Of a stretch of 64,000 nt of DNA, positions 26,924 to 62,891 are shown piece after piece. Positions within the stretch are counted from its first letter, which is position 1; each line of letters opens with the position of its first letter. The notes under the pieces were generated by a model. The model ran no database searches. It was not told the DNA's origin and saw only the letters and a program-made list of their open reading frames with translations. Both the position numbers and the translations under genes were made by a program. Source of the stretch: an uncultured Elusimicrobiales bacterium (lineage in GTDB: Bacteria; Elusimicrobiota; Elusimicrobia; Elusimicrobiales; Elusimicrobiaceae); the NCBI GenBank assembly GCA_944327085.1, contig CALVGG010000005.1:1-64000 (forward strand). The letters are read 5' to 3'.

Positions 26924-27709
26924 TTAACCATGCAGGCAGGCGGCCAATTGTTTGTAAGCGCAAAGAGATATACGCTCCGCCCGCGTTTGCGGCAAAATGC
27001 CGGTGCACGCCAAAGAAGCGGAAACTTTTTCTTTATCAAACCCGCACAAAAGAAGGGAATTATAAATGGTTTTGCGGCGGTGTAAAAAAGCCGCCTGCAC
27101 CAGCTTTTTAAACCGGGGCCAATCTTGCGGCTCAATAAAAGGCTGGGGTAGTTTTTCAAAAACAAGCACGGCGCTTTCCACTTTGGGCGGCGGGTTAAAA
27201 CTGCCTTTGCCCACATTGCAAAGCAAAGAAATTTTTGCCCGCGCCCGGCTTAATACGGAAAGAGGGCCGTAAAACTCTCCCCCCTCTTTGGCCTGTATGC
27301 GGTTGGCCTGTTCTTTTTGAAACATAAAAACACCGGCTGAAAAATAAGGAAAGGAAAGCACCTTATCCAAAATGTCCGCCGCGGCCGCATACGGCAAGTT
27401 GCCCACAAACAAAGTATCCTGTGCGGGCAAGGCCCCGGGCGGGAGGAGGCAAAAATCCCCCTCCAAAATTTCCACCCCGGCCTGCGGGGGCAGGTTTTGT
27501 TTTAAAAAAGCAATCATTTCCGGGTCAATTTCCGCCGCTTTAAAATGGGTAAAACCCGCCTTAATTAAGGCAAAGGTAAGGGCGCCTTTCCCGGGGCCTA
27601 TTTCCACCATTTCTTTGGTTTGCAAACGCCGGGCGGACTGAATAATTTGTTCAATCACCCTTTCATTTACCAAAAAATGCTGGCCGTAACGCTGGCGCAT
27701 GTGGCGCAT
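26924..27709 (-). CDS. rsmA: 16S rRNA dimethyladenosine transferase (KsgA)
   Basis: 261 aa. The N-terminal YGQHFLVN, the SAM-binding loop VEIGPGKGALT and the catalytic FVGNLPYAAAADIL are diagnostic. It dimethylates two adjacent adenosines in helix 45 of 16S rRNA during late 30S assembly. It starts three bases after the TPR-protein gene (AAGAGGAA before the ATG), so the two are co-transcribed. Confidence 0.95.
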   Translation of the reverse strand: MRHMRQRYGQHFLVNERVIEQIIQSARRLQTKEMVEIGPGKGALTFALIKAGFTHFKAAEIDPEMIAFLKQNLPPQAGVEILEGDFCLLPPGALPAQDTLFVGNLPYAAAADILDKVLSFPYFSAGVFMFQKEQANRIQAKEGGEFYGPLSVLSRARAKISLLCNVGKGSFNPPPKVESAVLVFEKLPQPFIEPQDWPRFKKLVQAAFLHRRKTIYNSLLLCGFDKEKVSASLACTGILPQTRAERISLCAYKQLAACLHG

Positions 27710-27712
27710 AAA

Positions 27713-29407
27713 TTATTCCTCTTTTAAGACGTTTAAATTCTTTTTGGCGGTTTTGTTTTTGGGGTTTAACTGCAAAGCCAGGTTATAAAATTTTTTGGCT
27801 TCCCCGTCATTACCGGCAATAACGGCCGCCGTGCCAAGGCCCATAAGGGGCAAATCGTCCTGCGGGGCCAGGCGGCGGGCCTCATCAAAACTTTGGGCGG
27901 CCTGAGAGGCCTTGCCCGCCACCAAAAAAGCAAGCCCCGTAAGCAGGGAAGTTTCCTCTTTAGTTAATGCACTGTCTTGCGCGGATAAATCGTCCAGTGC
28001 GTCTTCCACCAAGGCCAACCAGGACTTGCCCGTCACCCACAGCCCCATATCATTGCCCACCATGCGCGGGTCATACGCGGCGCGCGGGGCGGCCGTATCG
28101 TTTTGCGTCAGCGCACTGGGGGAGGCGTAATCCATCGTACGACCCTGCAAAGAAAGCGTAACATTATATTTGCCTTCCCCTTGTTTTACAGCCTGTTCCA
28201 GGCCGTCAATAAACTCTTTAATTTGCGCTTCCCGCTGGGTTTGCGTGGCGGCGCCCAACACAAAACTGCGCCTGAAAGCCATGGGTTTGGGGGCGTCTTC
28301 GGTAGGCAAGGCCGTGGAAGAGCGAAGTTTTTGGTATGCCCGTTCAAACGCGCAGGAAGAAGACGAGGACTTCTCCTGCGGTTTGGCCAAAGGGGTATAT
28401 TCCAGGGCAACGTCCACATTAATGTCTTTGGCGGCGGGAACGCGGGAAAGATTGTTGCGGAAGTTTTCTATTTCTTTATTAAAATCCTGCGCGCTACGGC
28501 CGCTGGAGCGGTATACCGCGTTTAAGGCCAGGCCGTCCTGCTTAAAACGGATGATGGAAAAAGCCCCGTCCAACACTTCGCGCGCTTTGGCGGGTTCTTT
28601 TTGCTGGTAATATAATTTGGCCAGCAGCAGGCGGGCTATAAAATCACCCGGCTTGGTGCGCACGGCCTTTTTGTAATATTTTAAAGCGGCGGAATCATCC
28701 CCCGTTTTTTCATACAGGGCGCCTAAAGAAAGCATGGCGTCTTCATATCCCCAAAATAAAGATAAAGCTTTTTTAAAGCTGGCTTCGGCTTGTTGGTCCC
28801 GGCCCATACGTTCATACAAAGAACCTAACTGATAATGATACAGCGGCTCCCGCGGGGCCAGTTCCACCGCGCGGCGGTAATGCTCAAGGGATTTTTCCCA
28901 CTCTTTTTGGGCGGCAAAGGTGGAAGCAAGGTTCATGTTGGTGTCGGCCTTGTCAGGCTCTAAATCATAGGATTTTTGAAAATAGTTCTGCGCCTGTTCC
29001 AGGTCCCCCTTCCAGCCGTAGGCAATGCCCAAAAGCTGGTAAGCCAGGGCGTTTTGAGGGTCTAAATGCAGGGCTTCGCGGTATTCGCTCATGGCTTCGT
29101 CCACCTTGCCGCTCCAGTACAGGGCGGCGCCCAAAAGCAAAAAGCCCATAGGGTCTTTGGGGTTTTTAATAACGGCTTTGGCAAAAGAGTTTTGTGCGTC
29201 TTTATAGCGGGCCAGGCTCATTTCCCCCAAGCCGCGCATCATGTCGGAGCGGGACTGGTCCTGCATAATTTGGTCCCACACGGTGTTAGAATAATCGGTG
29301 CGAATGGTTTTTTCTCCAAACGAAAACGGGAAAACCGCCCCCCAGCCTGAAGATGCCAAGCTGATAAAAACCAAAGCGCACAGCCATTTTTGCCCTGTTT
29401 TAAACAT
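27713..29407 (-). CDS. Exported TPR-repeat protein
   Basis: 564 aa from the ATG at 29407, which places the signal peptide (LCALVFISLASSGWGA) at the N-terminus; an in-frame TTG twelve codons upstream is less likely. About eight TPR units run from residue 45 to 290 (for example NPKDPMGFLLLGAALYWSGKVDEAMSEYREAL), followed by a non-repeat region (about 320-480) and two more TPRs at the end (PQDDLPLMGLGTAAVIAGNDGEAKKFYNLALQ). It probably works as a periplasmic scaffold. Its neighbour rsmA gives no functional hint. Confidence 0.8.
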   Translation of the reverse strand: MFKTGQKWLCALVFISLASSGWGAVFPFSFGEKTIRTDYSNTVWDQIMQDQSRSDMMRGLGEMSLARYKDAQNSFAKAVIKNPKDPMGFLLLGAALYWSGKVDEAMSEYREALHLDPQNALAYQLLGIAYGWKGDLEQAQNYFQKSYDLEPDKADTNMNLASTFAAQKEWEKSLEHYRRAVELAPREPLYHYQLGSLYERMGRDQQAEASFKKALSLFWGYEDAMLSLGALYEKTGDDSAALKYYKKAVRTKPGDFIARLLLAKLYYQQKEPAKAREVLDGAFSIIRFKQDGLALNAVYRSSGRSAQDFNKEIENFRNNLSRVPAAKDINVDVALEYTPLAKPQEKSSSSSCAFERAYQKLRSSTALPTEDAPKPMAFRRSFVLGAATQTQREAQIKEFIDGLEQAVKQGEGKYNVTLSLQGRTMDYASPSALTQNDTAAPRAAYDPRMVGNDMGLWVTGKSWLALVEDALDDLSAQDSALTKEETSLLTGLAFLVAGKASQAAQSFDEARRLAPQDDLPLMGLGTAAVIAGNDGEAKKFYNLALQLNPKNKTAKKNLNVLKEE

Positions 29408-29568
29408 AAATATATGATAGATAAAAACCTGTTTATACGGCAACCGGCCCTTTTTGTTTTTGATTATTTAAACGTTGCCCCACGGCAAATATAAAGGAAA
29501 AACAACAGGCCAATATAAACACTTTACCAATTATGCTGAAACGGCCTTAACAGTAAATATACCTGGCA

Positions 29569-29618: not shown

Positions 29619-32600
29619 CTATTCGTTTACTACCCCTTGTCCGGCGGTGCCTTGAGCCGTATCACCGGTATAACCACGTCTGTCCACATCCATCTTTTCA
29701 TAGCCTGTTTGCGGTTTAAAATTTAAACCGTTGCGACAGAGTAAGTTTAAGTAAGCCAAAACATCATTTACTGCCATTCTGGCTTGGTTGGAGTAAACTT
29801 GACATCCACCCGCATCATAGAAGGGACGATTATACTGTTCGTGATACTCATTACGCCATTGTCTGGTCCCTTTATGGCTGTTGGCACGGCCACCGCTCCA
29901 TTCGTTATAGGCTTTGTTCCCTGCAGATCCGGCATAAGACGGATCACGCGGATTGGGAACATTCAACGCTACATTCAACGAAGGATAGTTTAACTGCATA
30001 GAAGCCAGCGGATAATACCCGCCTACACCAATTCCATGAGCAGTTAAGAAGTCTTGATATCCCACAAACCCACTCGGATAAGTGGAATCCACCCCGTTAA
30101 AGCCTTCTCCGCTATCCCAGAAGCTATGGTCATAATAACCCCAGTGGATAGGAGCCCGGCCGGTAAAACGAGGGTCCTTTTGTGCCGTACTGGCTTTACC
30201 GTTTACATTTAATACTTTAGACGTTTGCATAGGGAACAGATAAGAATCCGGCCCTACGTACACCGCAAACGTACCAAAAGTATTTGGGAATTTGGAGTTG
30301 TTGGATACGTCCGGATCTGCAGAGATTTGTGCAATAGAGCGTGCTAAATAACACACACTGCGCACCGGTACGGTATTGTCCCCTTTATTTTGAGACATAT
30401 AATCCAAGACGATTAAATAATCCATGGTGGTCAGCCACCATTCGGATGTTTTTTCTTTATCCAAAATACCCTTTGCAACAGATATGGCCTGTTTCGCTTT
30501 TTTATTGGCCAGTTCTAATTCTGCATATTTAGAATCACTCACAGGAACACCGGCCTTTTTAAGTTGTTCAATAGAAGCTTCGTTTGTCTTTACAGCGTCC
30601 TCGTTGGTTTTAATAACCTGAGAAAGCACCTGTTTGGCCGTATCCTGGCATTCGCGGCACCAGATGGGGTTTTCTTTATATGCCGTATTGATGTCTACAC
30701 TCTTGGTTTGACCATTATAAAACACCAAGCTGGAAGAAGGTGCCCCTTCATACTGGCTGGGATCGCACGAGTAATTAGCCAAAGAACCACCTCTTTGCAC
30801 TGCCACCACAGGGGTGGGAGCCGGAGGTTCTACTTTTTCAGCTTCTACAGGTACTTCATCCGCCGCCGTACGCTGGCTGGCTTTTTCCATGGCTTTCCAA
30901 TTCACATTGGCTTTCACCTTGCCATCTGCACCGCTTAAGTCAAAACCAGGTTTCAGTTTCCCGTTTTCCACTAATTCCGGGTGCTGCTGCATTAACAATT
31001 TTTTAGCGTCCTTAATGCGATACTGCTGCGTTTGGTTGGCGCCATCCTTTTTGACGGTATTAGGTACAGGCTCAATTTCAGACGCCGGCACAGTCACCTG
31101 GTAATTTTGGCCTTCCCCTTCATAAGTAATAACAGCAGTTACTTCATAACCTTTAAAGTCCGTCGTTCCCGGAATCTTTAACGTTGCAACAGGGCTGTTA
31201 TCCGTAATTTTTTCGCCCAAGATTGCAAGGTCCGTAAAATCACACGGAGTGGTTAATACATATTCGGAGCGCTCTTTGCGATTAAATACTTTGTCTAAGT
31301 CCCTTTCTCTACCAGCAGAACGACCTTTTGTACGCTGGATATAGCTGTTGTCAAAGTCAAAGTAAATCATGGGCATAGCCGGAAGCTTGGCATCATTTTT
31401 GCTAATTTTGCCATCCACAGCCAAAGGCTTTTCTGAAGCCATACCCCGGATATATCTTAACTCTAAGCGTCCAAACGCCTGTTTTGCCGCGTTATAAGCT
31501 GTGGCATAACCTGGGTCATGCTCCAGTTCGTAGAAGGTATTTGCCTGGCTACCCTGCAGTTGCGCCAGCAACAGCATCGTTTCTTCTTTAAATTTGCGCC
31601 ATTCAAAAACCTGCCCGGCGGCCAAGTAAATTACACAGTCATGATAGTTAATTTCTACGTCCGTATTTTCATCACCGGCTTTACCGGCATTGGCATTAAT
31701 GTCTTCATAACTGTAGCGGCCTTGTACACGCCCGCTCTGCTGGGAGCGTTTAGCAAAGTTGTTGCCTACGGTTACCTCACCAGAAACACGAGCTTTTTCC
31801 AAGGAATGTTCCATTTTTTCAATTTCCGCTTTTAATTCTTTGGCGGAATAAGTTTTTCCTTCTACAACTACTTCCTTCGGTTGGCCCTTGCCGGCAGCTT
31901 CTAATTGTTTTAACTGCCCTTTCGCTACAGACAATAAGCGATACCCTTCATTTAAAGACACATAAGGGATTACATCTTCCACCCCCGTAGAGGTAGATTT
32001 GGTATACTGGCGGGAGCTGTCAAAACCGCATAAACGCTTGCCATTGCCAAACGGACTGTTATTGCGGGCAACCACAAAGTGATATGCATGCCATTTGGAA
32101 GCATCTCCCTGCAACTTAATAGAATAGACTTTATTAATTTGAAAGTCTTTACAAGCTGCACGGCCAGTACCGGACGGGGAAGAAATATCCGCTATCACGC
32201 CCAAACCACGGCGATTACGTCCAAAACCAAAACCTAAACAATCTAAACGTGTTTGGATAAAACTTCCACCAGTGGCTTTGGCTTCCACCCATTTACAGCC
32301 AAACTTTTCAGCATCTTTGGACTTACAAAAATCCTTTAAAGATAAGCCTGGAGGTGCAGAGGCCGGAGGATTTGTAATATAGGATTTTCCGCATTTGCAG
32401 CCTTCCATTTGGGCACCTTCTCCGCTGGAGCCTAAGACTTCACCCATAGCACCATCATCCTCACCGGTCAGCAAGCAGTTAATTAAGCCACCCAAAATGT
32501 TTTGGGCCAATTTATCTGCCCAGCCAATCCAGTCCCACTTGCGGTTAAAGCGTTTTTCCCATTCCATTTGGGAGCGGGTTTTCATCAAATCCCACCACCA

Positions 32601-33512
32601 CGGAGTAATACCGTTATAGCCAAAGCCGTGTTTCAAGTCGCTATGGCCGCCGGGCCCGCGGGATTCCCCACTAGATAAACCGCCTACGCGGCCGGGATTA
32701 ATCGGCGCGTACTGCGCGTCACGCAAAGCCTGCATGGCATTGCCTTTGGTTAAAGCTTGGGCAGACCGACGGGCCTGTTCCCCCGCGCCCATACCAAAAT
32801 AACCACGCTGCGGGCGTCCTGCCGCTTGTAAAGGCTGCAAAGACACCGGTTTAGGCGGGGTTACCTGTCTGGGGGCACTTACCTTTTTGGCAGCACCTTT
32901 TAAGCTGCCACCCCAAGGAGTAATGTTCAACCCACCGCCGGCAGAAGCCATGGCGGCACGGCCCATTTCTTTAATTTTGGTGGTAGAACGACGCACTGCC
33001 GCACGCGTGGCAGGGGCGGCAGTTCTTCTATATATATTGGTTGTGGTCTCCGTAGTGGGAGAAGAAGTATAAGAAGAGCTGCTGTCATCCAAACCGCTGC
33101 GGTCATAATCGTAAGAAGTATCCGCCGGTTCTTCATCACTGCCCCAGCCTTTAATAAGGCTTAACGGGTCACGCGCAGAAAGCTGCGCAATTTGACCGTC
33201 CGGATCCGTCACGGCAGTATCAAAACCGTAGCGTTCCGGGTCAAAAATGGTGTCCTCGCTGGAAGGAGCGATGACGGGCTCTTCATTCACTTGACCGCTG
33301 TATTTATACAAAAACGGCAACAGTAACAAAGCAGCCAGCGCCGCAATAAAGAACGGCGCATCCCGTTTGGTACGCTCAAAAAGCGTTTTCTTCGGGCGGC
33401 CATTGCTCCCTATCTTGGAGGAAATACGATTAGCAAAAGATGCAGGACCAGCGGCTTTGCTGTTTCTGATCTTATCGCTAAAGGTAAAACTGTCCTTTTT
33501 TTCCTCTGGCAT
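29619..33512 (-). CDS. Giant membrane-anchored protein of unknown function (1297 aa)
   Basis: AGGAGG directs the ATG at 33512. Residues 1-50 are basic and cytoplasmic, and 52-69 form the only clear TM, so over 1200 residues would be extracytoplasmic. A Ser/Thr/Ala/Arg-rich stretch (about 130-280) carries MASAGGGLNITPWGGSLKG, which resembles MASASGG...FGGTVKG in the 449-aa protein of the same block. Cys-rich patches (EGCKCGKS; CKSKDAEKFGCKW; WCRECQ) suggest disulfides or metal binding. The last 250 residues are rich in Tyr, Trp, Asn and Gly, like a surface domain. No family is recognised. Last gene before the terminator. Confidence 0.75.
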   Translation of the reverse strand: MPEEKKDSFTFSDKIRNSKAAGPASFANRISSKIGSNGRPKKTLFERTKRDAPFFIAALAALLLLPFLYKYSGQVNEEPVIAPSSEDTIFDPERYGFDTAVTDPDGQIAQLSARDPLSLIKGWGSDEEPADTSYDYDRSGLDDSSSSYTSSPTTETTTNIYRRTAAPATRAAVRRSTTKIKEMGRAAMASAGGGLNITPWGGSLKGAAKKVSAPRQVTPPKPVSLQPLQAAGRPQRGYFGMGAGEQARRSAQALTKGNAMQALRDAQYAPINPGRVGGLSSGESRGPGGHSDLKHGFGYNGITPWWWDLMKTRSQMEWEKRFNRKWDWIGWADKLAQNILGGLINCLLTGEDDGAMGEVLGSSGEGAQMEGCKCGKSYITNPPASAPPGLSLKDFCKSKDAEKFGCKWVEAKATGGSFIQTRLDCLGFGFGRNRRGLGVIADISSPSGTGRAACKDFQINKVYSIKLQGDASKWHAYHFVVARNNSPFGNGKRLCGFDSSRQYTKSTSTGVEDVIPYVSLNEGYRLLSVAKGQLKQLEAAGKGQPKEVVVEGKTYSAKELKAEIEKMEHSLEKARVSGEVTVGNNFAKRSQQSGRVQGRYSYEDINANAGKAGDENTDVEINYHDCVIYLAAGQVFEWRKFKEETMLLLAQLQGSQANTFYELEHDPGYATAYNAAKQAFGRLELRYIRGMASEKPLAVDGKISKNDAKLPAMPMIYFDFDNSYIQRTKGRSAGRERDLDKVFNRKERSEYVLTTPCDFTDLAILGEKITDNSPVATLKIPGTTDFKGYEVTAVITYEGEGQNYQVTVPASEIEPVPNTVKKDGANQTQQYRIKDAKKLLMQQHPELVENGKLKPGFDLSGADGKVKANVNWKAMEKASQRTAADEVPVEAEKVEPPAPTPVVAVQRGGSLANYSCDPSQYEGAPSSSLVFYNGQTKSVDINTAYKENPIWCRECQDTAKQVLSQVIKTNEDAVKTNEASIEQLKKAGVPVSDSKYAELELANKKAKQAISVAKGILDKEKTSEWWLTTMDYLIVLDYMSQNKGDNTVPVRSVCYLARSIAQISADPDVSNNSKFPNTFGTFAVYVGPDSYLFPMQTSKVLNVNGKASTAQKDPRFTGRAPIHWGYYDHSFWDSGEGFNGVDSTYPSGFVGYQDFLTAHGIGVGGYYPLASMQLNYPSLNVALNVPNPRDPSYAGSAGNKAYNEWSGGRANSHKGTRQWRNEYHEQYNRPFYDAGGCQVYSNQARMAVNDVLAYLNLLCRNGLNFKPQTGYEKMDVDRRGYTGDTAQGTAGQGVVNE

Positions 33513-33698
33513 AAGTGCCTCCTATGAAAATTAAATTTGCCTATAAACATAAACCAGGTTGGAATTGCCGGATTTTACAAATCCCCAATTACACAACCTT
33601 AGCCGTTACAAATTGTTCCCCAAACAACAGGGCACTGCCTACAGCCTACTACTCTACTATTATCTTAGCAACTGAAAGCCAAATAATCAAGGCCCAAT

Positions 33699-35309
33699 TT
33701 ACTCTAAATAGCTCCACCCTTGCGAGCCGGAAAGATCCGTCTCCGGGAAGAAATCATTGGGGGTAGACGTTCCGCCCGAATTGCCCCACACCGGCACGTT
33801 AAACGTACCCTGTACGCTTTCGGTTACCTGTTGGTTAGAAAATTGTTCCGGGTTATAAATGGATAAATCAATTTCTGCGCCTTCACCGGCATTGGCTTTA
33901 TCTTGTAAATATTCGGCGCACATACGTTCATATTCATTTAATTTATCATCTAAATTATTGGTGCTGCACTGGCCGGTGCGGTTATATTTTAATTGTAAGT
34001 AGCACTTGTCTTGCAAGGTGCTATAGTCCTTTTTTACCTGGGAGCAAGCATTGCGCACCTGCGCCAGGGAAGTGCGCCAATTATTTACTTTGGCCGTGTT
34101 TGCGCAATCCCCGGGAAACGCCGGGAAAGTGCCCTGCAATGCATTAATTTGGGCTATTACACTGGACGTCATCTCCGTAATCCGCGGGCCAACAGTACGG
34201 CTGGCGTCTTCACACTCCTGTTGGCGTTTTTGTTGTTCTTCAGCCGTTTCTATATCTGCCACCACATCGTCTTCTTCCAACCCGGCTACGGCTATTCCGC
34301 CTGTGGCACTAAATACTTTTTGGGGCATTTCTTCCGCAAAGAAGCCGGCCGCGGCCAATGTTTTCTTTAACGGAACTTGCTTGGCACGGCTGGAAGCCTG
34401 GCTGGTAAGCCAAATATAGCGGAAATCCGTCAACGTACGCCCTGCATTTTGCAATTGCATCATGGCAGAACTGGGCCCGCCTAATTTTTTATCCAAGCCG
34501 GAGGTTTGCTCCAATATGGCTTTATTTACAATATCTGCTTTCCAATCACTTTTTTGGGAGCCAATTACGCCTGCTTTTAAATTTTTTAAAGCGGCCGAGC
34601 CGTCAAACCCGTCCTTAGGGTCCCGGGCGATTAACCCCGTATCCGTTCCGTAATACAGTTCCGTCTGAGCTTGGGCAGAAGCGCGTGCATCTTTACTGAG
34701 TTGATTAATGCCTTTATTAAAACGAACCCCTTGTTTGTCTCTATCATCACCCGTATCAGGCGCCACGGAGGCCAAATAATCACCGCTTTTGCCTTGGCGG
34801 CGCAAGGAGGCATTAACGGCCTGAAAATCAATTAAAGAAGAAGACTCTTCCCCCACGGCCCCATAAGCCGCAGCGCCGCGTTTTATGGCATCAAAACGCC
34901 CCGGCTGGGTAGAAAAAATGGAATAAGAATTAGCCGCTATACGTGCCGCCGGGCCGCGCTCGTCATCGGCCCAAAAAAGCAAAGTTTTTAAAAAAGACAT
35001 TTCCTGCATTTGTTCTTCGCTATATCCCATCGCACGCGCCAACGAGGACAGCACCGGTATTTGGCTAACCGGAACAAAGCCCCCCACGCCGCCAAATACT
35101 AAAAGCAGCAAAATAAGCAATAACCAATATTTTTTGGCCAGCAATTTTTGTTTTAAACCGGAAGGAGAAGGCTTACCCGCCCCGTTTACGGGTTGGTGTT
35201 GGGGAGCGGCAGAAACCGGCATTGGATTAGGCTTTTGCACAACAGCCTGCACCGGCCTTTGTGCGGCCGGTGCAGCAGATGAATGATCCGGAGGAAGTTG
35301 GTCTACCAT
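33699..35309 (-). CDS. Membrane-anchored protein of the surface block (536 aa)
   Basis: The start is the ATG at 35309 (AAGGGG upstream); a GTG two codons earlier has no spacing for that site. Residues 1-60 are Pro/Gln/Ala-rich and presumably cytoplasmic, TM at 61-79, and the rest is extracytoplasmic and helix-rich. A FSATGGIAVAG stretch near residue 340 recalls the Ser-Ala-Gly-Gly motif of its neighbours. Five or more Cys occur in the last 170 residues. No family is recognised. A 186-nt gap separates it from the 1297-aa gene, larger than any other gap in this block. Confidence 0.7.
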   Translation of the reverse strand: MVDQLPPDHSSAAPAAQRPVQAVVQKPNPMPVSAAPQHQPVNGAGKPSPSGLKQKLLAKKYWLLLILLLLVFGGVGGFVPVSQIPVLSSLARAMGYSEEQMQEMSFLKTLLFWADDERGPAARIAANSYSIFSTQPGRFDAIKRGAAAYGAVGEESSSLIDFQAVNASLRRQGKSGDYLASVAPDTGDDRDKQGVRFNKGINQLSKDARASAQAQTELYYGTDTGLIARDPKDGFDGSAALKNLKAGVIGSQKSDWKADIVNKAILEQTSGLDKKLGGPSSAMMQLQNAGRTLTDFRYIWLTSQASSRAKQVPLKKTLAAAGFFAEEMPQKVFSATGGIAVAGLEEDDVVADIETAEEQQKRQQECEDASRTVGPRITEMTSSVIAQINALQGTFPAFPGDCANTAKVNNWRTSLAQVRNACSQVKKDYSTLQDKCYLQLKYNRTGQCSTNNLDDKLNEYERMCAEYLQDKANAGEGAEIDLSIYNPEQFSNQQVTESVQGTFNVPVWGNSGGTSTPNDFFPETDLSGSQGWSYLE

Positions 35310-35324
35310 ACACACCCCTTTGCG

Positions 35325-35537
35325 TTACGGGCGGGAGCCATATTCCCGCTGGAATTTTAAAAACTGTTCCTGGCGGGCTTGGCGTTCTGCCTTTTGGGCA
35401 CGATATTCATTTAACTTTTGGGTGGCGCTTTGGTATTGGGCGTCAAAATACAACCAAATACCAACACATGTGGCAACCAATACAATTAATATCGAAAGGC
35501 CGATAAACCGTCTTATTTTAATATCTACATTTGCCAT
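35325..35537 (-). CDS. Small single-TM coiled-coil protein (70 aa)
   Basis: MANVDIKIRRF is followed by one TM (about 12-30) and a charged helical tail (QKLNEYRAQKAERQARQEQF) that should form a coiled coil. It fits tightly between two larger genes of the block (9 and 15 nt gaps). The design matches that of the 89-aa protein two genes upstream, so both may be adaptor or linker subunits of one membrane complex. No family known. Confidence 0.7.
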   Translation of the reverse strand: MANVDIKIRRFIGLSILIVLVATCVGIWLYFDAQYQSATQKLNEYRAQKAERQARQEQFLKFQREYGSRP

Positions 35538-35546
35538 AACACACCC

Positions 35547-37013
35547 TTAGTTTCCATCCAAATTGTTATTGGTAATATCACTGTCCTCATACCCCTTAAT
35601 ACCTTTTATAGAATTAAGCGCTTGGGAACCAGCGCCTGCTGCTGTACTAATGGACGATGCTCCTCCCACAAGCGGGCCGCCCAATTTTTCACTCAGCTTT
35701 CCTATAAATTTATTAAGTTTGTCCGCCACAGATTTAATATAAGAAATACCAATCAAAGCAAGTAAGGTAGGGCCAACAATCATACATGCAGTGGTTAATC
35801 CGCTGCCACCCCATTTTTTTATGTACTTTCCAGCATCTACCATAAACAAAGAAATAGCTACAGCCATCGCGGCGCCAATTGCAATAGCAGCAACAGTGCC
35901 CCATGGTGGTTTCCTAAATAAAGCACTAATGGCAAACATAGCGGGAATGGTTAACATAACCAAAGCAACCATAGCGCGTTTCAAGCGGGTGCGGTCCTGT
36001 AAGCGCTGTAATTCCTGTTCCGTTAAGTCATTGGCAGCCTGATCTAAATTATTGCGGGCATCAATAGTGGCTTGTTCAAAATCGTCAGACATTACCCCTC
36101 CTTCTGACAATTCCCCCTCATTTAACTGTATCCCGCCGGAATTTTGAGAGCTGGCCATAAAAGCGCGGCCCGCTTCGTTAGCGGAGCGGTTGGCGTTTTG
36201 GGCAATTTCTGCCGAGCGTTTGCGTATTTGTTCCAATGTTCTGCCTTCGGCAGAATCCATTCCGCGCCCGGCACGCGCACTGCGGGAAGGATCAAAAGAT
36301 GCATCTACGTCTCTAAATTTGGCACTGGCCACCAGCGTAGAGCCTTCCGGCATGGCGCCGGATAATTTATAAGAACTTCCACCGGTCATACCTAAAGAAT
36401 TGCCGCTTCTGTTAACGGCACCCGCGGAACCGCTGCCAGAACGAGATGAAGTTCCTCCATACATATTGCCGGATACCCCGCCGCTGGCAGTAGCCATCAC
36501 ACCGCGTTGGGCCATGGCGGCAGAAGCCGCACGCGTTCCGCCGGCAGCACCGGCAGCAGCCAAAGCCTGGCCGTTGGCGTCCACCTTTTGATTATTTATT
36601 ACAATATCGTTGTTGCCTCCCAGGCCTTCGCTATGGCCGGCCATGTTTCGTGCGGCAGGTGTTTTGCCGCCATTTAAATTAGTGCCTAATTTATCTACCG
36701 CGGCCAAGCTGGCGTCATCAGCACCCCAATCATAACCGGCGGAGGCTAAGCCGCCGCTGGCAGAAGTAATACCCTGCGCCCCGGAAATTTTAATGGTTTC
36801 TTCCATAGTACCGGCGGCATCTGCCTCGCGGCCGTAGCTGCTCATAACGGCCCCGCGCACACGGGCTTCTTGCTGGGGCGCGCCGGACTGATTACCCGTT
36901 GCATACCACACCCCGGCAGCGGCAGCCCCCAAACCGGCCGTTAGAGCCAGCTTTTGCGGCAAGCCCAATACAAACTTGCCGGCTTTACTTTTTAAAATAG
37001 CCAATATGTTCAT
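35547..37013 (-). CDS. Surface-block paralogue A (488 aa)
   Basis: GGAGG precedes the ATG. N-terminus ILKSKAGKFVLG with a TM at about 21-38, then a long Ala/Gly/Ser-rich region (40-240) with MATASGGVSGNMYGGT at 173-188. A conserved block KRSAEIAQNANRSANEAGRAF (265-285, then NSGGI and SDDF) is shared almost residue for residue with the 518-aa protein. Three TM segments follow at about 347-365, 372-392 and 404-425. The N-terminal anchor plus C-terminal multi-TM bundle would leave the low-complexity part as a loop outside the membrane. Family unknown. Confidence 0.75.
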   Translation of the reverse strand: MNILAILKSKAGKFVLGLPQKLALTAGLGAAAAGVWYATGNQSGAPQQEARVRGAVMSSYGREADAAGTMEETIKISGAQGITSASGGLASAGYDWGADDASLAAVDKLGTNLNGGKTPAARNMAGHSEGLGGNNDIVINNQKVDANGQALAAAGAAGGTRAASAAMAQRGVMATASGGVSGNMYGGTSSRSGSGSAGAVNRSGNSLGMTGGSSYKLSGAMPEGSTLVASAKFRDVDASFDPSRSARAGRGMDSAEGRTLEQIRKRSAEIAQNANRSANEAGRAFMASSQNSGGIQLNEGELSEGGVMSDDFEQATIDARNNLDQAANDLTEQELQRLQDRTRLKRAMVALVMLTIPAMFAISALFRKPPWGTVAAIAIGAAMAVAISLFMVDAGKYIKKWGGSGLTTACMIVGPTLLALIGISYIKSVADKLNKFIGKLSEKLGGPLVGGASSISTAAGAGSQALNSIKGIKGYEDSDITNNNLDGN

Positions 37014-37034
37014 AAAATCCTCCGCCAGTTACCT

Positions 37035-37304
37035 TTAGCGATCCGTCACCGCGTTAAGGCTTTGGTTTTCCGCAGAAGAAGAATTAAGTTTAGTGGCGCG
37101 CATAAAACTTTGCGCACGCCGCATTTCTTCCTGTCTTAATTCATATTCCGCTTCCTGCTTTTTTAAAACGGCTTTATCGTGGAAATAACCGCTCCAACCC
37201 CACACCATCCAAACGGCCCATATTAAACATAAGGCGCCATACAGCCACCCGGCCCGGTTGAATATTTTTATTTCTTGCTCCGTCAAAATATATTTCCCTG
37301 CCAT
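37035..37304 (-). CDS. Small single-TM coiled-coil protein (89 aa)
   Basis: One Trp-rich TM (about 20-41, LYGALCLIWAVWMVWGWSGYF) is followed by a Glu/Lys/Arg-rich helix (DKAVLKKQEAEYELRQEEMRRA). GGGGG lies in front of the ATG. It sits between paralogues A and B with gaps of 8 and 21 nt. The topology matches the 70-aa protein, one small anchor after each large paralogue, which suggests pairing between them (inference). Confidence 0.7.
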   Translation of the reverse strand: MAGKYILTEQEIKIFNRAGWLYGALCLIWAVWMVWGWSGYFHDKAVLKKQEAEYELRQEEMRRAQSFMRATKLNSSSAENQSLNAVTDR

Positions 37305-37312
37305 AAAGCCCC

Positions 37313-38869
37313 CTATTTAGCAGCATCCGAACCAGATATTTGTGACTGCATTTCTTGCCGGCTCATATTGCTGGCAGAGCGTCCTTCCTGCACGTCCAGC
37401 GTGGAACCGGGCTCATTGACGCCCGCTCCGCCTCCGCTTACCGTACCCACACGGGTATCATCGGCCGAGCCGTCATCATGACGCAATTCATCTACTGAAG
37501 TAGTCCATCCGAAAGCATCTGCCAGCATCCACGGAATCATTGCTACAAACAGGGCCAACCCGCCAAAGGCACCGGCCTTGGCACAAATTCTTAATTTTTT
37601 AGCAATTTTCTCCCCGGCTTTGGCTTCTTTGCTACGGTCGCCATACTCCGCATTATAAGAGGCAGCATCCGCAAAGTATTTATTAAATTTTCTTTTCACT
37701 GCACGCCAAGACAAGAACGGCGGTAAGAAACACACACCAATTGTTGCCCCAATCAATTGGCGAAGCTGACGGCGAAGGTTTTTTCTTTGTTCCTTAAACT
37801 CTTCTTCCGCGGTTAACAACTCATCCATTGCGCCATTTACGGCACCGTGAATACCGGATAAAGAGGCATCGCCAAAATCGTCGGAACTGGCACCCTGCCC
37901 TACGGAAACTTCCCCTATACCATCTAAGCGAATACCGCCAGAGTTTTTGGTGCTGGCCAAAAAGGCACGCCCGGCTTCGTTGGCGGAACGGGTTTCGTTA
38001 CCGGCAATTTCCGCCGAACGTTTTGCTATCATTTCCAAGCTGTTAAATTCCTGAGAACCTTGTATTCTATTTACATTGGCCCCAAAACTGGGTTTAGCCC
38101 GCTGATTGCGCGCCGTGGGGATGCGAGCCCCTTCCTGACCGGGCAGATAAACAGCATCCGTACCCGAAGCAATACCTTCAGAACCGCTAGAAGAACCAGC
38201 CCCGCCCGGCATACCTACATATTGTACAGAGCCGGAAGAAGATAAGCCTGTACCCGCCATCATACTGCCAGAACGGCCAGAAGCCCCTGCCGCAGCCCCT
38301 AAACCACCGCGGGATGCAGCCCCATTTACCCCACTGGCCGCTGCAGCGGCTATGGCATCTGCCTGGGCTTTACCTGCGGCTATGGCATCCTGTGCTTGCT
38401 GCATGGTCTGCGCTTGCAGTGCCTTAATTTCTTCCGGCGTCATGGCTTCCAGTTTTTTGTTGCCCAAGCCCTCGTTTAAACCGCCAAAAGAATTAGCCTG
38501 CACACTGGGAGTAGACAAATTGGCCTCATACGCAGCACGTTCAGCCTCTTCCCGCGCCTGTTCCTGTTGGCGCAAATACTCGGCTTCCTGCTGTTGCATT
38601 TCTATGGCTTTGGACGGGGCCGCCCGGAAAGAACTTTCCGTGCTTTCCCCCCGGCCATATTTACCCGTAGAAGCACTGGACACATAAACAATCTCTTCCT
38701 GCGGTTGGTAACCCAAGGAGTTGTAGGCAGTGTCCGAAGGAGAAGATGAACTTAAAAATTGCCAGGCGGCAATGCCGCCTAAGCCCACCGCCGCAGAAGC
38801 AGCAATGGCCTGTGTGGCGGAAAGTACTGCTTTACCTGCTTGGCTGCTAAAAAATTTGAATAATTTCAT
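37313..38869 (-). CDS. Surface-block paralogue B (518 aa)
   Basis: The ATG at 38869 is chosen because TGGAGG lies five bases upstream; an in-frame TTG inside that site is rejected. N-terminus FFSSQAGKAVLS with TM at about 20-38, a Gln/Glu/Ala-rich coiled-coil stretch (85-175), a Gly/Ser-rich stretch (185-250), then the block KRSAEIAGNETRSANEAGRAF (283-303), with NSGGI and SDDF, shared with paralogue A. TM segments at about 372-387 and 431-450 flank a basic loop. Tandem duplication with divergence best explains A and B. No known family. Confidence 0.75.
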   Translation of the reverse strand: MKLFKFFSSQAGKAVLSATQAIAASAAVGLGGIAAWQFLSSSSPSDTAYNSLGYQPQEEIVYVSSASTGKYGRGESTESSFRAAPSKAIEMQQQEAEYLRQQEQAREEAERAAYEANLSTPSVQANSFGGLNEGLGNKKLEAMTPEEIKALQAQTMQQAQDAIAAGKAQADAIAAAAASGVNGAASRGGLGAAAGASGRSGSMMAGTGLSSSGSVQYVGMPGGAGSSSGSEGIASGTDAVYLPGQEGARIPTARNQRAKPSFGANVNRIQGSQEFNSLEMIAKRSAEIAGNETRSANEAGRAFLASTKNSGGIRLDGIGEVSVGQGASSDDFGDASLSGIHGAVNGAMDELLTAEEEFKEQRKNLRRQLRQLIGATIGVCFLPPFLSWRAVKRKFNKYFADAASYNAEYGDRSKEAKAGEKIAKKLRICAKAGAFGGLALFVAMIPWMLADAFGWTTSVDELRHDDGSADDTRVGTVSGGGAGVNEPGSTLDVQEGRSASNMSRQEMQSQISGSDAAK

Positions 38870-38883
38870 AAAAACCTCCAAAA

Positions 38884-40233
38884 TTAAGGTTTATACTGAT
38901 CACAATCGGGCCCCTTATTTTTTTTACAATTTTCATATTCCGTCCAACTTTTATTATCCTTGGATGAATTAACCGAAGACCGATTCGTTGTATTCCCTAA
39001 AGTGATTGTGGGTGTATTCAAAATACCATTTCCAATAATATTACCGGAATATTTAGACGGATCCGCATTGGCACGTATTTGATTCTGAAAGTATGAGGCG
39101 CCTTTATCCGTAATAACCCATTTCTTTGAATCTTGATTAAAAGTTACATAACCATTGGTTTGATAATTGGCATAATTTGAATCCAGATTTTCCCCAGTTA
39201 CCCAAGTCAAAGGGGCCTCCTTGCCGGATTTTAAATCACCGGGAGAAGCGCCAAAGGCACCTCTGGCATAAGCAGAACGGGCCTGGTTCATAGCCGTAAT
39301 TTGATTAATTTTATTACCGGCCCACTGTTTTGCCAAGTCTAACCCAGCATTAAAAAGAGCTTCCCCAAACATTCTCCAAATACTTTCTTCCTCCGCCAAT
39401 TGCTGTTCTTGCGCTTTTTCACGCGCGTCGGCGGCGCGTTCCTGCATGGTGTCATCCAACCCGCTCAAATCGGGCGTATCGCTTGCTTCATAATTTACCC
39501 CGCTGCCCGTACCTTTAAGCGGCACACCATTAGAGTCAAACCCACCCGTACCCGATACGTGTGAACCAAATAACGCTTTTTGAGAGTCCCGCGCTTTATT
39601 GGCCCCGCGGGCAGCCGCACGACTGGCGGAATTAAAACGAGCTAATGCCTGGCGGGCATTGTTAGGGTCTACAAATGGGGCTTCCCGGCCTTTATCTTCA
39701 CGTTGAAAAGGCGAAAAATCCCCCTTTACCGTACCGCCAAACGTGGCAGAAGTATTCCCCCCGCTGGCGGAAGCCATAGAACTGCTGGGGGTAAAAGAAC
39801 CGATTTGCGTAGGCGTACGTGCGGCCCCGCTGCCGCCCCCGCGGCTATAGCCGGTATACCCGCTGGAAGAAGAACTATCCGTTGAGGAAGTCTCTTTCTC
39901 CTCTTCTTTAGCGGCGTCCTCTGCTTGCCGGGCCTCTTTTTCTTCCTTGGAATAAATGGCGTTTACATTATTATTGCGCATATCCGGATATTTGGACGCC
40001 AATAAAAACTGTTCGGCCTCGTCATTTACAAAGGGCATTTGGGCCAAATCGTACCCGCGGCCCTGCAAATCGTCAAAAGAATCATCCGGCCCGCTCCCCG
40101 CGGCGGAGGCTAGCGTTAACAGCGCCACCAAAGCCACAATGGCAATAGCCCCGTATGTATAGGCCTGCTTTTTATCCATATGGCTCAGTTTTTTAAATAC
40201 CTTGCCGGCCATGGGAGATTTAAAATTAAACAT
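38884..40233 (-). CDS. First protein of the surface block (449 aa)
   Basis: AAGGGG precedes the ATG at 40233. N-terminus SPMAGKVFKK with TM at 25-44, echoing the AGK anchors of paralogues A and B. A Ser/Gly/Tyr-rich segment (about 125-150) is followed by MASASGGNTSATFGGTVKG and an Ala/Arg helix ending SGTGGFDSNG, comparable with the NSGGI region of A and B. The C-terminal 150 residues look folded (TWVTGENLDSNYANYQ...GYVTFNQDSKKWVITDKGASYF), perhaps a small winged domain. It is led by the promoter and leader at 40234-40374. Confidence 0.72.
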   Translation of the reverse strand: MFNFKSPMAGKVFKKLSHMDKKQAYTYGAIAIVALVALLTLASAAGSGPDDSFDDLQGRGYDLAQMPFVNDEAEQFLLASKYPDMRNNNVNAIYSKEEKEARQAEDAAKEEEKETSSTDSSSSSGYTGYSRGGGSGAARTPTQIGSFTPSSSMASASGGNTSATFGGTVKGDFSPFQREDKGREAPFVDPNNARQALARFNSASRAAARGANKARDSQKALFGSHVSGTGGFDSNGVPLKGTGSGVNYEASDTPDLSGLDDTMQERAADAREKAQEQQLAEEESIWRMFGEALFNAGLDLAKQWAGNKINQITAMNQARSAYARGAFGASPGDLKSGKEAPLTWVTGENLDSNYANYQTNGYVTFNQDSKKWVITDKGASYFQNQIRANADPSKYSGNIIGNGILNTPTITLGNTTNRSSVNSSKDNKSWTEYENCKKNKGPDCDQYKP

Positions 40234-40374
40234 AAATTACCCCTTTTTACATGATATAAAAATTACTCTTGTCGGCCCGTGCGCAAGTAACCCGCACGCC
40301 CAAACACAGAGTTTCATATAGTTTCCCCTATAGGGGGTTACTTTTAGTATAGGCAACCAAAAAGGTCTTGTCAA
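40234..40374 (-). promoter_or_regulatory. Strong promoter and structured leader of the surface block
   Basis: Minus strand: TTGACA (40374-40369), 17-nt spacer, TATACT (40351-40346), the best sigma-70 promoter in the window. The start should lie near 40339. A palindrome CCCCTATAGGGG covers 40336-40325. Further on, GTGCG/CGCAC (40297-40279) forms a hairpin whose loop GGTTACTTG matches the 5' end AAGTAACC (40343 onward) base for base. This allows a pseudoknot, or alternatively marks a 9-bp inverted repeat (AAGTAACCC / GGGTTACTT) bound by a protein. The AGGGG ribosome site could also pair with the CCCCT of the first hairpin. Confidence 0.65.
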
Positions 40375-40400: not shown

Positions 40401-40934
40401 TTAATCCGGCTGCACATACGGCATAACGCGGTCGTTCTTGCCTACAAATTTTTTAACCTCAATTTCTCCGCCGGTATCACACAAATATTCATACCCTTTA
40501 AAACAGCGGTTATCCCCTTTGCATACTTCAAATTTGTCATAATTGCAAAGAAAGCGAATACGGGGCGGATTAGTATACACTTTTAGGGTAACCAAGGTCC
40601 ATGTGCCGGAAGTTTCTACCTCCAGCACAAAACGCCGCAAGCTTAAAAAGGTTTTCATACCGCTGTTATTAAAACCCAGGTAATCTTCCACCTTTTTTTG
40701 AATGTCTTTTTCCAAAAATTGCCGGTTCCAATTTTGCATAGAATCAGGCACCCCACCCTGCAACTGGTAGCGCCGCGCGGCATAAAATGCGGCAATTTCC
40801 ATCTTTTGGTTTAGTACCAGCAAACCAAATATTTTAATGATAAACACGGCAAAAATAACAAACAGCGGAAACAGCAGCACCACCTCTGTGGTGGCCTGCC
40901 CCTTACGCTTGCGAAGAAAAGACAAATCCATCAT
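40401..40934 (-). CDS. TadE-like pseudopilin 2
   Basis: 177 aa. RKRKGQATTEVVLLFPLFVIF is the TadE signature: basic residues, a Gly before the cleavage point, Glu five residues on, then a hydrophobic helix. The mature C-terminal region carries four Cys in two pairs (RFLCNYDKFEVCKGDNRCFKGYEYLCD). It would be processed by a TadV-like peptidase and act as a minor pilin. It overlaps the TadG-like gene by one base. This is the second TadE of the locus; the other is at 56269-56757. Confidence 0.85.
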   Translation of the reverse strand: MMDLSFLRKRKGQATTEVVLLFPLFVIFAVFIIKIFGLLVLNQKMEIAAFYAARRYQLQGGVPDSMQNWNRQFLEKDIQKKVEDYLGFNNSGMKTFLSLRRFVLEVETSGTWTLVTLKVYTNPPRIRFLCNYDKFEVCKGDNRCFKGYEYLCDTGGEIEVKKFVGKNDRVMPYVQPD

Positions 40935-42043
40935 TATGGCTGCATCCTTATGCTATATTTAGGCAGCGGGTTGGGCCATACACAGTTGTTGCCGCTGCGC
41001 GGGCACTGCACCCCCACCTGGGTACGCACTTTGGGTTTGTATTTAACCGTTAAATTAATATCAAAATTGTTTAAAGGGAGCTGATAGCTCTGCTCCAGCT
41101 TAATACCGTTGCGCAATTTTTTAAGACGGTCCAAACTGGAAGAATCCAAATAAGAAAACTGAAACAGTTTCTTGCGCACATCGGTGGACATATTTAAATC
41201 TATCGGATAAGATACCGTCATATACTGGCCGATATCTTCCGTAAAATAAGCGCGAACTTTGTCAATTTCAAACGGCTTGGCATTAATTTGCAAATAGTTT
41301 GCCATAATGGCTGCACTCTGGCGGGCGCAGTCTTTCTGATTGCGGCAAGAGGGAGAATTTAAATAATACGCTTCTCTAAACATGCGCGCTTCGCGGGTGG
41401 TATCCTGGAAGGAAAACGTCTGCGATTGGAAAATCTGCCCCAACAGCAAATAGGTTGTAATATACTGTTTTAAAGACGGAATACCCACCGTGGTAGACGG
41501 GAAAAAGTTTTCATCCGCTATTTTTTTGCTGGTCAGCACATAACGGCCTTCTTCATCCGGAGATTCAGACGGCTGTTCCTTGTTCCAGTTTTTACGGGTA
41601 TTTTGATAGTAGGCAAAATCCCAATCGTCCGCCTCCGGGGAGGGGTTTGGGTTAAAGCCGGCATTGGCGCCATGGTCCGGCCCCAAAGCAGGGAAAGCCC
41701 CGGCCTGATAAAAAATATCAAAAACAGTGTACTGGCCTTTGGTGCCGGCCGCCCCTTTGGGGGAAAGATAATCTCCATTATAACTGCGCATAACCCTGTA
41801 GGCCATGTTGCCGTTGGTATAGGCCAAGGCATTCAGGTACACCGTTAAGGATGACATTTGGCTGTACGCCGCATTATCCAAGGCAAACTGGTTGCGTATT
41901 TTATACATGGATACTTTGGACGTTTCAAATAACAAGTAAATAACCAAAATAAAAATGGGAGCCAGCAACACCGCCGGAAGCAAAATTTGCGCCCGGTTGT
42001 TGCTTACGGTTTGTTTACATAAACGCCCAAAAGTACCCAGCAT
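40934..42043 (-). CDS. TadG-like pseudopilin
   Basis: 369 aa. The N-terminus (SNNRAQILLPAVLLAPIFILVIYLLFE) matches the TadG/TadE class, with an atypical 'RAQILLP' in place of the usual G-Q-x-A pattern. A long extracytoplasmic part follows with two Cys pairs (SPSCRNQKDCARQ; VQCPRSGNNCVW). The usual TadG von Willebrand domain is not apparent. It lies between a Flp-like pilin and TadE 2, so it probably joins the tip or base of the filament. Confidence 0.7.
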   Translation of the reverse strand: MLGTFGRLCKQTVSNNRAQILLPAVLLAPIFILVIYLLFETSKVSMYKIRNQFALDNAAYSQMSSLTVYLNALAYTNGNMAYRVMRSYNGDYLSPKGAAGTKGQYTVFDIFYQAGAFPALGPDHGANAGFNPNPSPEADDWDFAYYQNTRKNWNKEQPSESPDEEGRYVLTSKKIADENFFPSTTVGIPSLKQYITTYLLLGQIFQSQTFSFQDTTREARMFREAYYLNSPSCRNQKDCARQSAAIMANYLQINAKPFEIDKVRAYFTEDIGQYMTVSYPIDLNMSTDVRKKLFQFSYLDSSSLDRLKKLRNGIKLEQSYQLPLNNFDINLTVKYKPKVRTQVGVQCPRSGNNCVWPNPLPKYSIRMQP

Positions 42044-46044: not shown

Positions 46045-46995
46045 TTAGCAGCTTCCGGCAGGAGCAGCGGGCTGCCCGTTGGCAGCAGGCGCGGCAGGGT
46101 TCATAAATTCAAACCCTTCAATTTCGGCCACACCGCCAAAATCCAATACTACTTTGCCTTCCCACAGGAAGGACGGAGAAGCATTCACCCCGTATTCCTG
46201 GGTGTATTTGGCTTCTTCTTTTAAAAGTTCTACGCCTTCGGTATCAAATTTTTTCATGATTTTTTTGCTGTTGATACCGGCTTCTTCCATGGCTTTATCC
46301 CAGCGGCTGGAGCGATAATCTTTATTGCGGATTTCCAAATATTTCCAGAATTTTTTGGGATAGTATTTGGCAATTAACAATTGGCGGATGTCTTCTTCCC
46401 ATTCAGCAGAACCGTGCAGGCTGGAGAAACCGTCTTTATCGCTGTAATTTACAATATAGCGCACGCGGATATCTTTGCCCTCCGGCAGTTTGCCCGCTTT
46501 TTGGGCTTCAATTACTTTGTTTTCCGCCATTGCACCATAAGGGCACTGAGACATAACAAACAGTTCCAACACGCCGGGTTTGGCTTCTTTTTCAGGCAGA
46601 ACGCCCTGGCGGGTTTGGCGCGGAAGGGCAATAAACTCGTCCTTTTCAATGGCTACGCCATACTGAATGTGCTGGCTCAGTTTTTCACGAATGGCATCCG
46701 TCTTTTTAACGATATACAAAGGCAGGAAAGAGTAATTCATTTCGGCCAATTTGGGGTCTTTTTTGGCTTCAGACACCGGCACCTTGGTTACTTTCGGTTC
46801 CATACCCAAAAATTGGGAAATGCCCAGCGTAAGCTGCGGGTCTTCTTTCCCGGCGTCGTAATCTTCCGATTCAACGATAATAAACTCCGCCGTTTGTTTG
46901 GCAGGTTCTGCTTTCTTTTTAGCGATTTTAGCCGTGGCCGCAAATGCCGCACCGGCCAAAGCAAACACCACAAATACCGTCAATAATTTTTTCAT
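46045..46995 (-). CDS. Exported thioredoxin-like protein with a single CPYG cysteine
   Basis: 316 aa. Signal peptide about 1-20 (ending AFAA). A thioredoxin/DsbA-like domain starts near residue 140: LELFVMSQCPYGAMAEN has Cys151 but Gly where the second Cys of CxxC would be. The cis-Pro loop is present (GVNASPSFLWEGK). The only other Cys is the last residue, Cys316 (APAGSC), after an Ala/Pro tail. An N-terminal extension (about 35-135) has no known match. It probably assists disulfide handling of the Cys-rich pilus and surface proteins (inference). Confidence 0.75.
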   Translation of the reverse strand: MKKLLTVFVVFALAGAAFAATAKIAKKKAEPAKQTAEFIIVESEDYDAGKEDPQLTLGISQFLGMEPKVTKVPVSEAKKDPKLAEMNYSFLPLYIVKKTDAIREKLSQHIQYGVAIEKDEFIALPRQTRQGVLPEKEAKPGVLELFVMSQCPYGAMAENKVIEAQKAGKLPEGKDIRVRYIVNYSDKDGFSSLHGSAEWEEDIRQLLIAKYYPKKFWKYLEIRNKDYRSSRWDKAMEEAGINSKKIMKKFDTEGVELLKEEAKYTQEYGVNASPSFLWEGKVVLDFGGVAEIEGFEFMNPAAPAANGQPAAPAGSC

Positions 46996-58179: not shown

Positions 58180-58193
58180 AAATCCTTTCTACC

Positions 58194-62747: not shown

Positions 62748-62891
62748 TGTGCAATTTTCCATAACCTTAAACCGGCTACTGTTTAATTGAATATATTCCA
62801 AATCGATTGTGCCGTACCGATAATACGACGTGCCGGTCCAACGCATACAATATATTATATATAAAAATACGCGTCGTGCCTGCTTCTATAA

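What the first reader, a model, noticed from the sequence alone, without database searches (positions are those of the whole stretch)
29619..40233. Undescribed block of membrane-anchored, partly paralogous surface proteins behind the Tad genes
Seen: six genes (449, 518, 89, 488, 70 and 536 aa) run with gaps of 2-21 nt, followed by a 1297-aa gene. Three start with a basic segment holding AGK and then a TM. Two share the block KRSAEIA...RSANEAGRAF, NSGGI and SDDF, followed by C-terminal TMs. A motif of the form MA(S/T)A(S/G)GG...(F/W/Y)GG(S/T) recurs in the 449-, 488- and 1297-aa proteins. Two small TM/coiled-coil proteins alternate with the large ones. I recognise no family. Inference: they form one envelope-spanning complex that extends, anchors or decorates the Tad pilus.
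Basis: partly seen in the sequence, partly recalled or inferred. Interest (0 to 1): 0.82.

Follow-up and report, generated by a model that had tools for sequence, protein, structure and literature searches.

The report
Tad-linked envelope module with variable heads
Behind the pilus (Tad) genes of a gut Elusimicrobia bacterium lies a conserved set of membrane-anchored proteins that match no known family; two of them keep a constant anchor but carry fast-changing, apparently exchangeable heads, which suggests a surface-display or attachment device that only this bacterial class uses.

Summary
In detail: seven same-strand genes (A-B-C-D-E-F-G; 449, 518, 89, 488, 70, 536, 1297 aa) have no acceptable Pfam, NCBIfam, PHROG, PADLOC or PDB match. 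B and D are clear paralogues; A shares the MASASGG...GG motif region with D and G. The block is not peculiar to this genome. It occurs in all 52 sampled genomes of the family and in recognisable form in three more families of the class: 84 of 86 genomes carrying the close TadZ-TadA fusion, 0 of 113 other phylum genomes. It usually follows tadG-tadE on the same strand, also in a distant family, so the Tad linkage is old. It is still a separate transcription unit: TTGACA-N17-TATACT precedes gene A in 44 of 45 loci and stays with the block where it has moved away from Tad. G and A have conserved anchor halves and hypervariable C-terminal heads; G heads appear to be exchanged between species. F and G carry invariant cysteines, and the Tad locus encodes a DsbA-like protein. 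Best reading: a Tad-associated, inner-membrane-anchored, envelope-spanning module that presents variable disulfide-bonded heads. The function and the physical link to the pilus are inferred, not shown. None of the seven carries the type IV prepilin motif.

The parts
40346..40374 (-). Conserved sigma70-type promoter TTGACA-N17-TATACT in front of gene A
   Evidence: 11 of 12 match; conserved in 44 of 45 loci against 1.7 expected; only 4 strict matches in the 1.67 Mb genome; kept at detached blocks
38884..40233 (-). Gene A (449 aa): N-in single TM (28-46), conserved anchor half with MASASGG motif, hypervariable C-terminal head (about residue 271 on, 38887-39423)
37313..38869 (-). Gene B (518 aa from ATG; TTG start at 38881 gives 522): marginal N-terminal hydrophobic segment, KRSAEIA..RSANEAGRAF block, C-terminal TM(s)
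37035..37304 (-). Gene C (89 aa): small TM plus charged helix; homologous small protein at this place in most relatives
35547..37013 (-). Gene D (488 aa): paralogue of B, with MATASGG motif and about three C-terminal TMs
35325..35537 (-). Gene E (70 aa): second small TM/coiled-coil protein; in relatives one small protein (C-like) lies either between B and D or between D and F
33699..35309 (-). Gene F (536 aa from ATG; 538 from GTG): TM and a C-terminal helical bundle (33801-34274) with six cysteines conserved in 87-98% of 55 homologues
29619..33512 (-). Gene G (1297 aa): conserved anchor and linker (residues 1-340, 32493-33512) and a variable head (from about residue 381, 29622-32372) with conserved cysteines
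40401..42043 (-). tadE-like (40401-40934, Pfam TadE 22.3 bits, just under cut-off) and tadG-like (40934-42043, assigned by position and shape, no Pfam match) genes directly upstream; the anchor point of the conserved linkage
46045..46995 (-). DsbA/thioredoxin-like protein with CPYG in the Tad locus; candidate partner for disulfide formation in F and G
   Evidence: (weak, E 0.004)

Best explanation
The block is an envelope-spanning accessory module of the Tad machine of class Elusimicrobia, expressed from its own promoter. Five of its proteins (A, C, E, F, G) have an apparent N-terminal inner-membrane anchor, and B and D are firmly anchored by C-terminal TMs. A and G are the presenting proteins: a constant half (basic cytoplasmic start, one TM, long Gly/Ser/Pro linker with the shared motif) stays with the machine, and the variable C-terminal head is presented outward and exchanged between lineages. 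B, C, D, E and F are the constant scaffold; F and G are disulfide-stabilised, probably by the DsbA-like protein of the Tad locus. Most likely role: adhesion or contact at the cell surface, with the heads reaching the outside through or beside the Tad secretin. Shown: anatomy, synteny, promoter, constant-anchor/variable-head pattern, conserved cysteines. Inferred: complex formation, exposure of the heads, physical link to Tad, adhesive role.
For: Conserved gene order A-B-C-D-F-G in the genus and behind tadG-tadE. Same arrangement Tad-HK-tadG-tadE-A-B/D(x3)-F-G in distant family f7 (L208/L209) and tadE-A-B-C-F in g14 (L205). Homology of f2 and f1 members by profile: A 2.6e-11, D 3e-7, F 4.3e-13, G 3.7e-13, all well above shuffled controls. 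Block found only in genomes with the close TadZ-TadA fusion (84/86 against 0/113, tallied). Promoter in 44/45 loci. In 56 locus pairs with tadE at 80-90% identity: G anchor 77% and head 36%, A anchor 67% and head 18%, TPR flank 75%. Two species about 92% identical in the flanks differ most sharply in the A head and the G head. The window's G head is 75% like L095 but 10% like L098, although L098 is nearer in B, D and F. Cysteines of F and G conserved up to 100%. Tandem G copies in G161.
Against: The block leaves the Tad locus in f2 and in about 10 genomes of f1. Tad genomes of other classes live without it. No outer-membrane channel lies in the block. The G and A anchors could simply keep the heads in the periplasm, where fast change could be relaxed constraint. 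No structure match supports an adhesin; the CBM21-like hit to part of the G head has E about 0.03.
Confidence: 0.5

Rival explanations
1. An autonomous envelope complex (surface-layer-like, gliding or cell-cell contact) that merely sits next to Tad in many lineages, perhaps because both are surface functions.
For: Own promoter that travels with the block; separate location in family f2 and in Elusimicrobium; Tad is present in 154 of 199 phylum genomes, so co-occurrence alone is weak.
Against: Same-strand position behind tadG/tadE conserved in f1 and the distant f7; the block is confined to genomes with one particular Tad lineage.
Confidence: 0.3
2. The heads of G and A are secreted or injected toxin-like or effector payloads handled by the module, rather than displayed adhesins.
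For: Constant N-terminus with a polymorphic exchangeable C-terminus is also typical of polymorphic toxins; G can be duplicated in tandem.
Against: No toxin domain in Pfam for 8 G proteins checked and no PADLOC match; no immunity-like small gene directly after G (TPR and KsgA, or unrelated genes, follow); the head is very large and cysteine-rich.
Confidence: 0.1
3. Fast-evolving periplasmic scaffold: the variable heads are not exposed, they vary through relaxed constraint, and the module helps assemble Tad across the periplasm.
For: Low-complexity linkers; low-confidence stretches in the F and G models.
Against: Invariant cysteines within the variable region and the patchwork of similar and unrelated heads at equal anchor identity point to folded, exchanged domains.
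Confidence: 0.1

Closest known systems
Tad (Flp) pilus system, TadE/TadF/TadG minor pilins
   Same: Genetic neighbourhood; small to large proteins with an N-terminal membrane segment, encoded after the machine genes
   Different: No prepilin G/A-x4-E motif in any of the seven, while the neighbouring TadE has it; TadE Pfam does not hit them; B and D have C-terminal TMs; cytoplasmic basic starts of up to 50 residues
PilY1-type tip adhesins of type IV pili
   Same: Very large protein, at the end of an operon of membrane proteins linked to a type IV filament machine, variable part presumably outside (PilY1 features recalled, not tested)
   Different: Here the N-terminus is constant and membrane-anchored and the C-terminus varies; no Pfam or structure match
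Inner-membrane-anchored, periplasm-spanning proteins of the TonB/TolA kind
   Same: Anatomy: short cytoplasmic start, one TM, long flexible linker, distal domain (recalled)
   Different: No sequence match; variable heads; several paralogues in one operon
Constant-stem/variable-head surface proteins (polymorphic adhesins, tail-fibre-like proteins)
   Same: Pattern of evolution: conserved anchor, exchanged head
   Different: No shared domains; an N-terminal TM anchor instead of an outer-membrane barrel or cell-wall anchor

Membership tests
Tad/type IV minor pilins (TadE/F/G) | Class III prepilin motif (basic leader, G/A, x4, E) before the first hydrophobic segment | tested here: not met
   none in A-G; present in TadE 40401-40934
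Tad/type IV minor pilins (TadE/F/G) | Match to the TadE/TadG profile families | tested here: not met
   no TadE/TadG hit in the seven; TadE hit only in P0008
Tad locus accessory component | Conserved genetic linkage to Tad genes beyond close relatives | tested here: met
   behind tadE in f1 genera and in f7; exceptions listed
Tad locus accessory component | Physical or functional dependence on the Tad machine | not testable with these tools
   needs co-purification or deletion
PilY1 tip adhesin | Sequence or fold match to PilY1 | tested here: not met
   no match by Pfam, PDB sequence or Foldseek
CBM21 carbohydrate-binding module (part of the G head) | Significant fold match | tested here: inconclusive
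   probability 0.97 but E 0.02-0.05 over about 115 residues; probably the strand-rich part near residues 751-876 (the output gives no query range); no Pfam support
Anti-phage defence system | PADLOC model match | tested here: not met
Phage or mobile-element protein | PHROG match or presence on viral contigs | tested here: not met
   only weak hits of the 70-aa protein; no relative of A among IMG/VR contigs

The most novel reading that the evidence does not exclude
A previously undescribed, class-specific envelope machine in which a fixed inner-membrane scaffold (B, C, D, E, F) presents exchangeable giant heads (A, G) through the outer membrane, using or borrowing the Tad secretin: a modular head-swapping display system built from protein families with no known relatives.
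Probability: 0.25. Interest if true: 0.85.

Novelty: new variant of a known kind. Interest (0 to 1): 0.62.

Why it matters
Tad pili were detected by survey in Elusimicrobia (PMC6668835), and no paper in the searched library described this companion module. It adds seven protein families of a Tad-linked system that is nearly universal in several families of the class.

Tried and rejected
Foldseek of F against PDB (best hit HopQ scaffold, E 0.45) and of the G head against PDB and viral models: nothing at E<0.001. TrbK/VirB-like reading from the weak TrbK hit of the 70-aa protein (E 0.0012; 19 bits against a cut-off of 50): rejected, short TM/coiled-coil similarity only. Spanin-like PHROG hit of the same protein: same reason. 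SseC-like Pfam hit in one of 39 B/D proteins (E 0.00096): isolated, rejected. G as part of a type II secretion locus in E. minutum: rejected, because oppositely oriented housekeeping genes lie between. A general short motif shared by all paralogues, tried by regex on f2, was not general. Claim of recent head transfer between L096 and L098: withdrawn, because downstream flanks are also 95-100% identical over several kb there; the swap argument rests on other pairs.

Full report
What is there. The window (G000:C5) comes from a 1.67 Mb genome whose relatives are gut Elusimicrobiaceae; named hits of protein G are all labelled Elusimicrobia, Elusimicrobium, Avelusimicrobium or unlabelled MAGs. G090, with a contig of 1,643,562 bp, matches the size I recall for Elusimicrobium minutum Pei191. 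The seven genes exist as described. I call them A (449), B (518), C (89), D (488), E (70), F (536) and G (1297). None has an acceptable match in Pfam, NCBIfam, PHROGs, PADLOC or PDB sequences, except one isolated marginal SseC hit in one of 39 B/D proteins. Foldseek found nothing at E<0.001 for F or the G head.

Paralogy. B and D are paralogues (P 2.5e-32). A shares the motif region with D and with G above column-shuffled controls (A~D 42.9 against a null maximum of 15.3; A~G 38.6 against 14.4), while F is unrelated at this sensitivity. The motif count is above shuffles in A and G, and only slightly in D.

Distribution. G is found in 36 of the 37 genus genomes; the last, G003, has A, B, C, D and F at a contig end. 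F profiles reach families f2 and f8. Reading the f2 loci showed an operon of the same order, A1-A2-B-D-F-G, away from Tad. Profile comparison confirms homology gene by gene: A 2.6e-11, D 3e-7, F 4.3e-13, G 3.7e-13, with scores 62-125 against shuffled maxima of 14-23; the f2 B matches D (4e-6) rather than B. New profiles then found f7. My tally over: all 52 f1 genomes, 16 of 17 f2, 15 of 16 f7 and 1 of 1 f8 carry recognisable block genes. These 86 are the genomes with a TadZ-TadA fusion at 51% identity or more; none of the other 113 sampled phylum genomes shows the block. Shared ancestry explains part of this, so it is not an independent proof of dependence.

Linkage to Tad. In most genus genomes the block follows HK, RR, tadG and tadE on the same strand about 20 kb after the TadZ-TadA gene. 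The same holds in some g12 genomes, in g14 (L205) and apparently in g16 (L188/L190), where the genes after tadE are assigned only in part (F, G). It also holds in f7: L208/L209 read cpaB-rcpA-TadZA-...-HK-tadG-tadE-FtsH-like-A-B/D-B/D-B/D-F-G on one strand (Pfam of the FtsH-like gene; one of the three B/D genes is assigned by place only). Six f7 genomes have G 22-37 kb downstream of TadZA in the same direction. The linkage is therefore old. Exceptions are real: G030, G004, G147, G097, G099, G073, G140 and the Elusimicrobium genomes in f1, and all f2 loci read.

Own promoter. TTGACA-N17-TATACT lies at 40374-40346, between tadE and A. A strong promoter-like match of this kind is present in 44 of 45 distinct tadE-A intergenic stretches against 1.7 expected. 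It also precedes A in the detached blocks L050, L045, L093, L080, L177 and L178, and the lone G of L075. The strict pattern occurs four times in the whole genome. So the block is its own transcription unit, which moves with its promoter.

Anatomy. Hydropathy gives one N-terminal TM with positive residues on the start side in A, F and G, and C-terminal TMs in B and D. The N-terminal hydrophobic stretches of B, C and D fall below my threshold, so their N-terminal TMs are less certain. None has a prepilin motif; TadE does. F is modelled as a TM helix plus a confident helical bundle (residues 348-505, pLDDT mostly above 90) holding six cysteines conserved in 87-98% of homologues; in G five cysteines are invariant in 61 rows. 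The Tad locus encodes a DsbA/thioredoxin-like protein with CPYG (weak E 0.004), a plausible oxidase for them (inference).

Constant anchors, variable heads. Along G, consensus conservation is 0.40-0.83 in residues 1-375 and drops to 0.11-0.47 after that. For 56 locus pairs with tadE at 80-90% identity the means are: HK/RR 92%, tadE 84%, tadG 72%, TPR flank 75%, A anchor 67%, A head 18%, B 50%, D 46%, F 54%, G anchor 77%, G head 36%. L138 and L141, about 92% identical in DNA around the block, fall to 49-70% in the A head and to 50-83% in the G head, the lowest stretches of the block. The window's G head is 75% like L095 but 10% like L098, with both anchors at 87-88%, although L098 is nearer in B, D and F. 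This discordance needs exchange or replacement of heads. No formal recombination test was run. The near-identical heads of L096 and L098 are not evidence of transfer, because their downstream flanks are also nearly identical.

Mechanism. Shown: a conserved unit, own promoter, membrane anchors, cysteine-rich parts, constant-anchor/variable-head pattern, old linkage to Tad. Inferred: the anchors form one inner-membrane complex; the heads of A and G reach the outside through or beside the Tad secretin; they act in adhesion or contact. Rivals are an autonomous envelope complex, a toxin/effector payload, and a hidden periplasmic scaffold.

Novelty. The protein families appear undescribed in the libraries and papers searched; many papers are not held, including the E. 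minutum genome paper. Because the most likely home is the known Tad machine, I rate it a new variant of a known kind, with a categorically new display machine as the most novel reading not excluded.

Noticed in passing
window 52397-54715 (-): TadZ/CpaE-like and TadA/CpaF-like domains are fused in one 772-aa protein; similar fusions run through the class, while many genomes of other classes align over the TadA part only.
   Followed up: partly
window 57214-62846 (-): Upstream of the pilin genes lie a UPF0164 (PorV-like) protein and a 1550-aa protein with FlgD Ig-like repeats and a weak CHU_C type IX secretion signal, suggesting a second, type IX-like surface route beside Tad.
   Followed up: no
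L208:11264-12973 and corresponding genes in L212, L215, L218: In family f7 an AAA + M41 (FtsH-like) protease gene (Pfam-checked in L208 only) sits between tadE and gene A; absent from the window's locus.
   Followed up: partly
L218:14567-19823 and L206:4565-9593: Two G-like genes in tandem in G161 and, probably, in G165.
   Followed up: partly
G000:C5:96105-96133 and 96735-96763: Two identical strict promoter matches 630 bp apart, outside the window; what they drive was not examined.
   Followed up: no
window 27713-29443 and 26924-27709 (-): The TPR protein and KsgA follow G in many relatives and also flank F or G in genomes where the block has left Tad, so the TPR protein may belong to the system.
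   Followed up: no
L041, L046, L175, L186 upstream of tadG: Many relatives have a short extra Flp-pilin-like ORF (about 55-62 aa) just before tadG, not listed at that place in the window.
   Followed up: no
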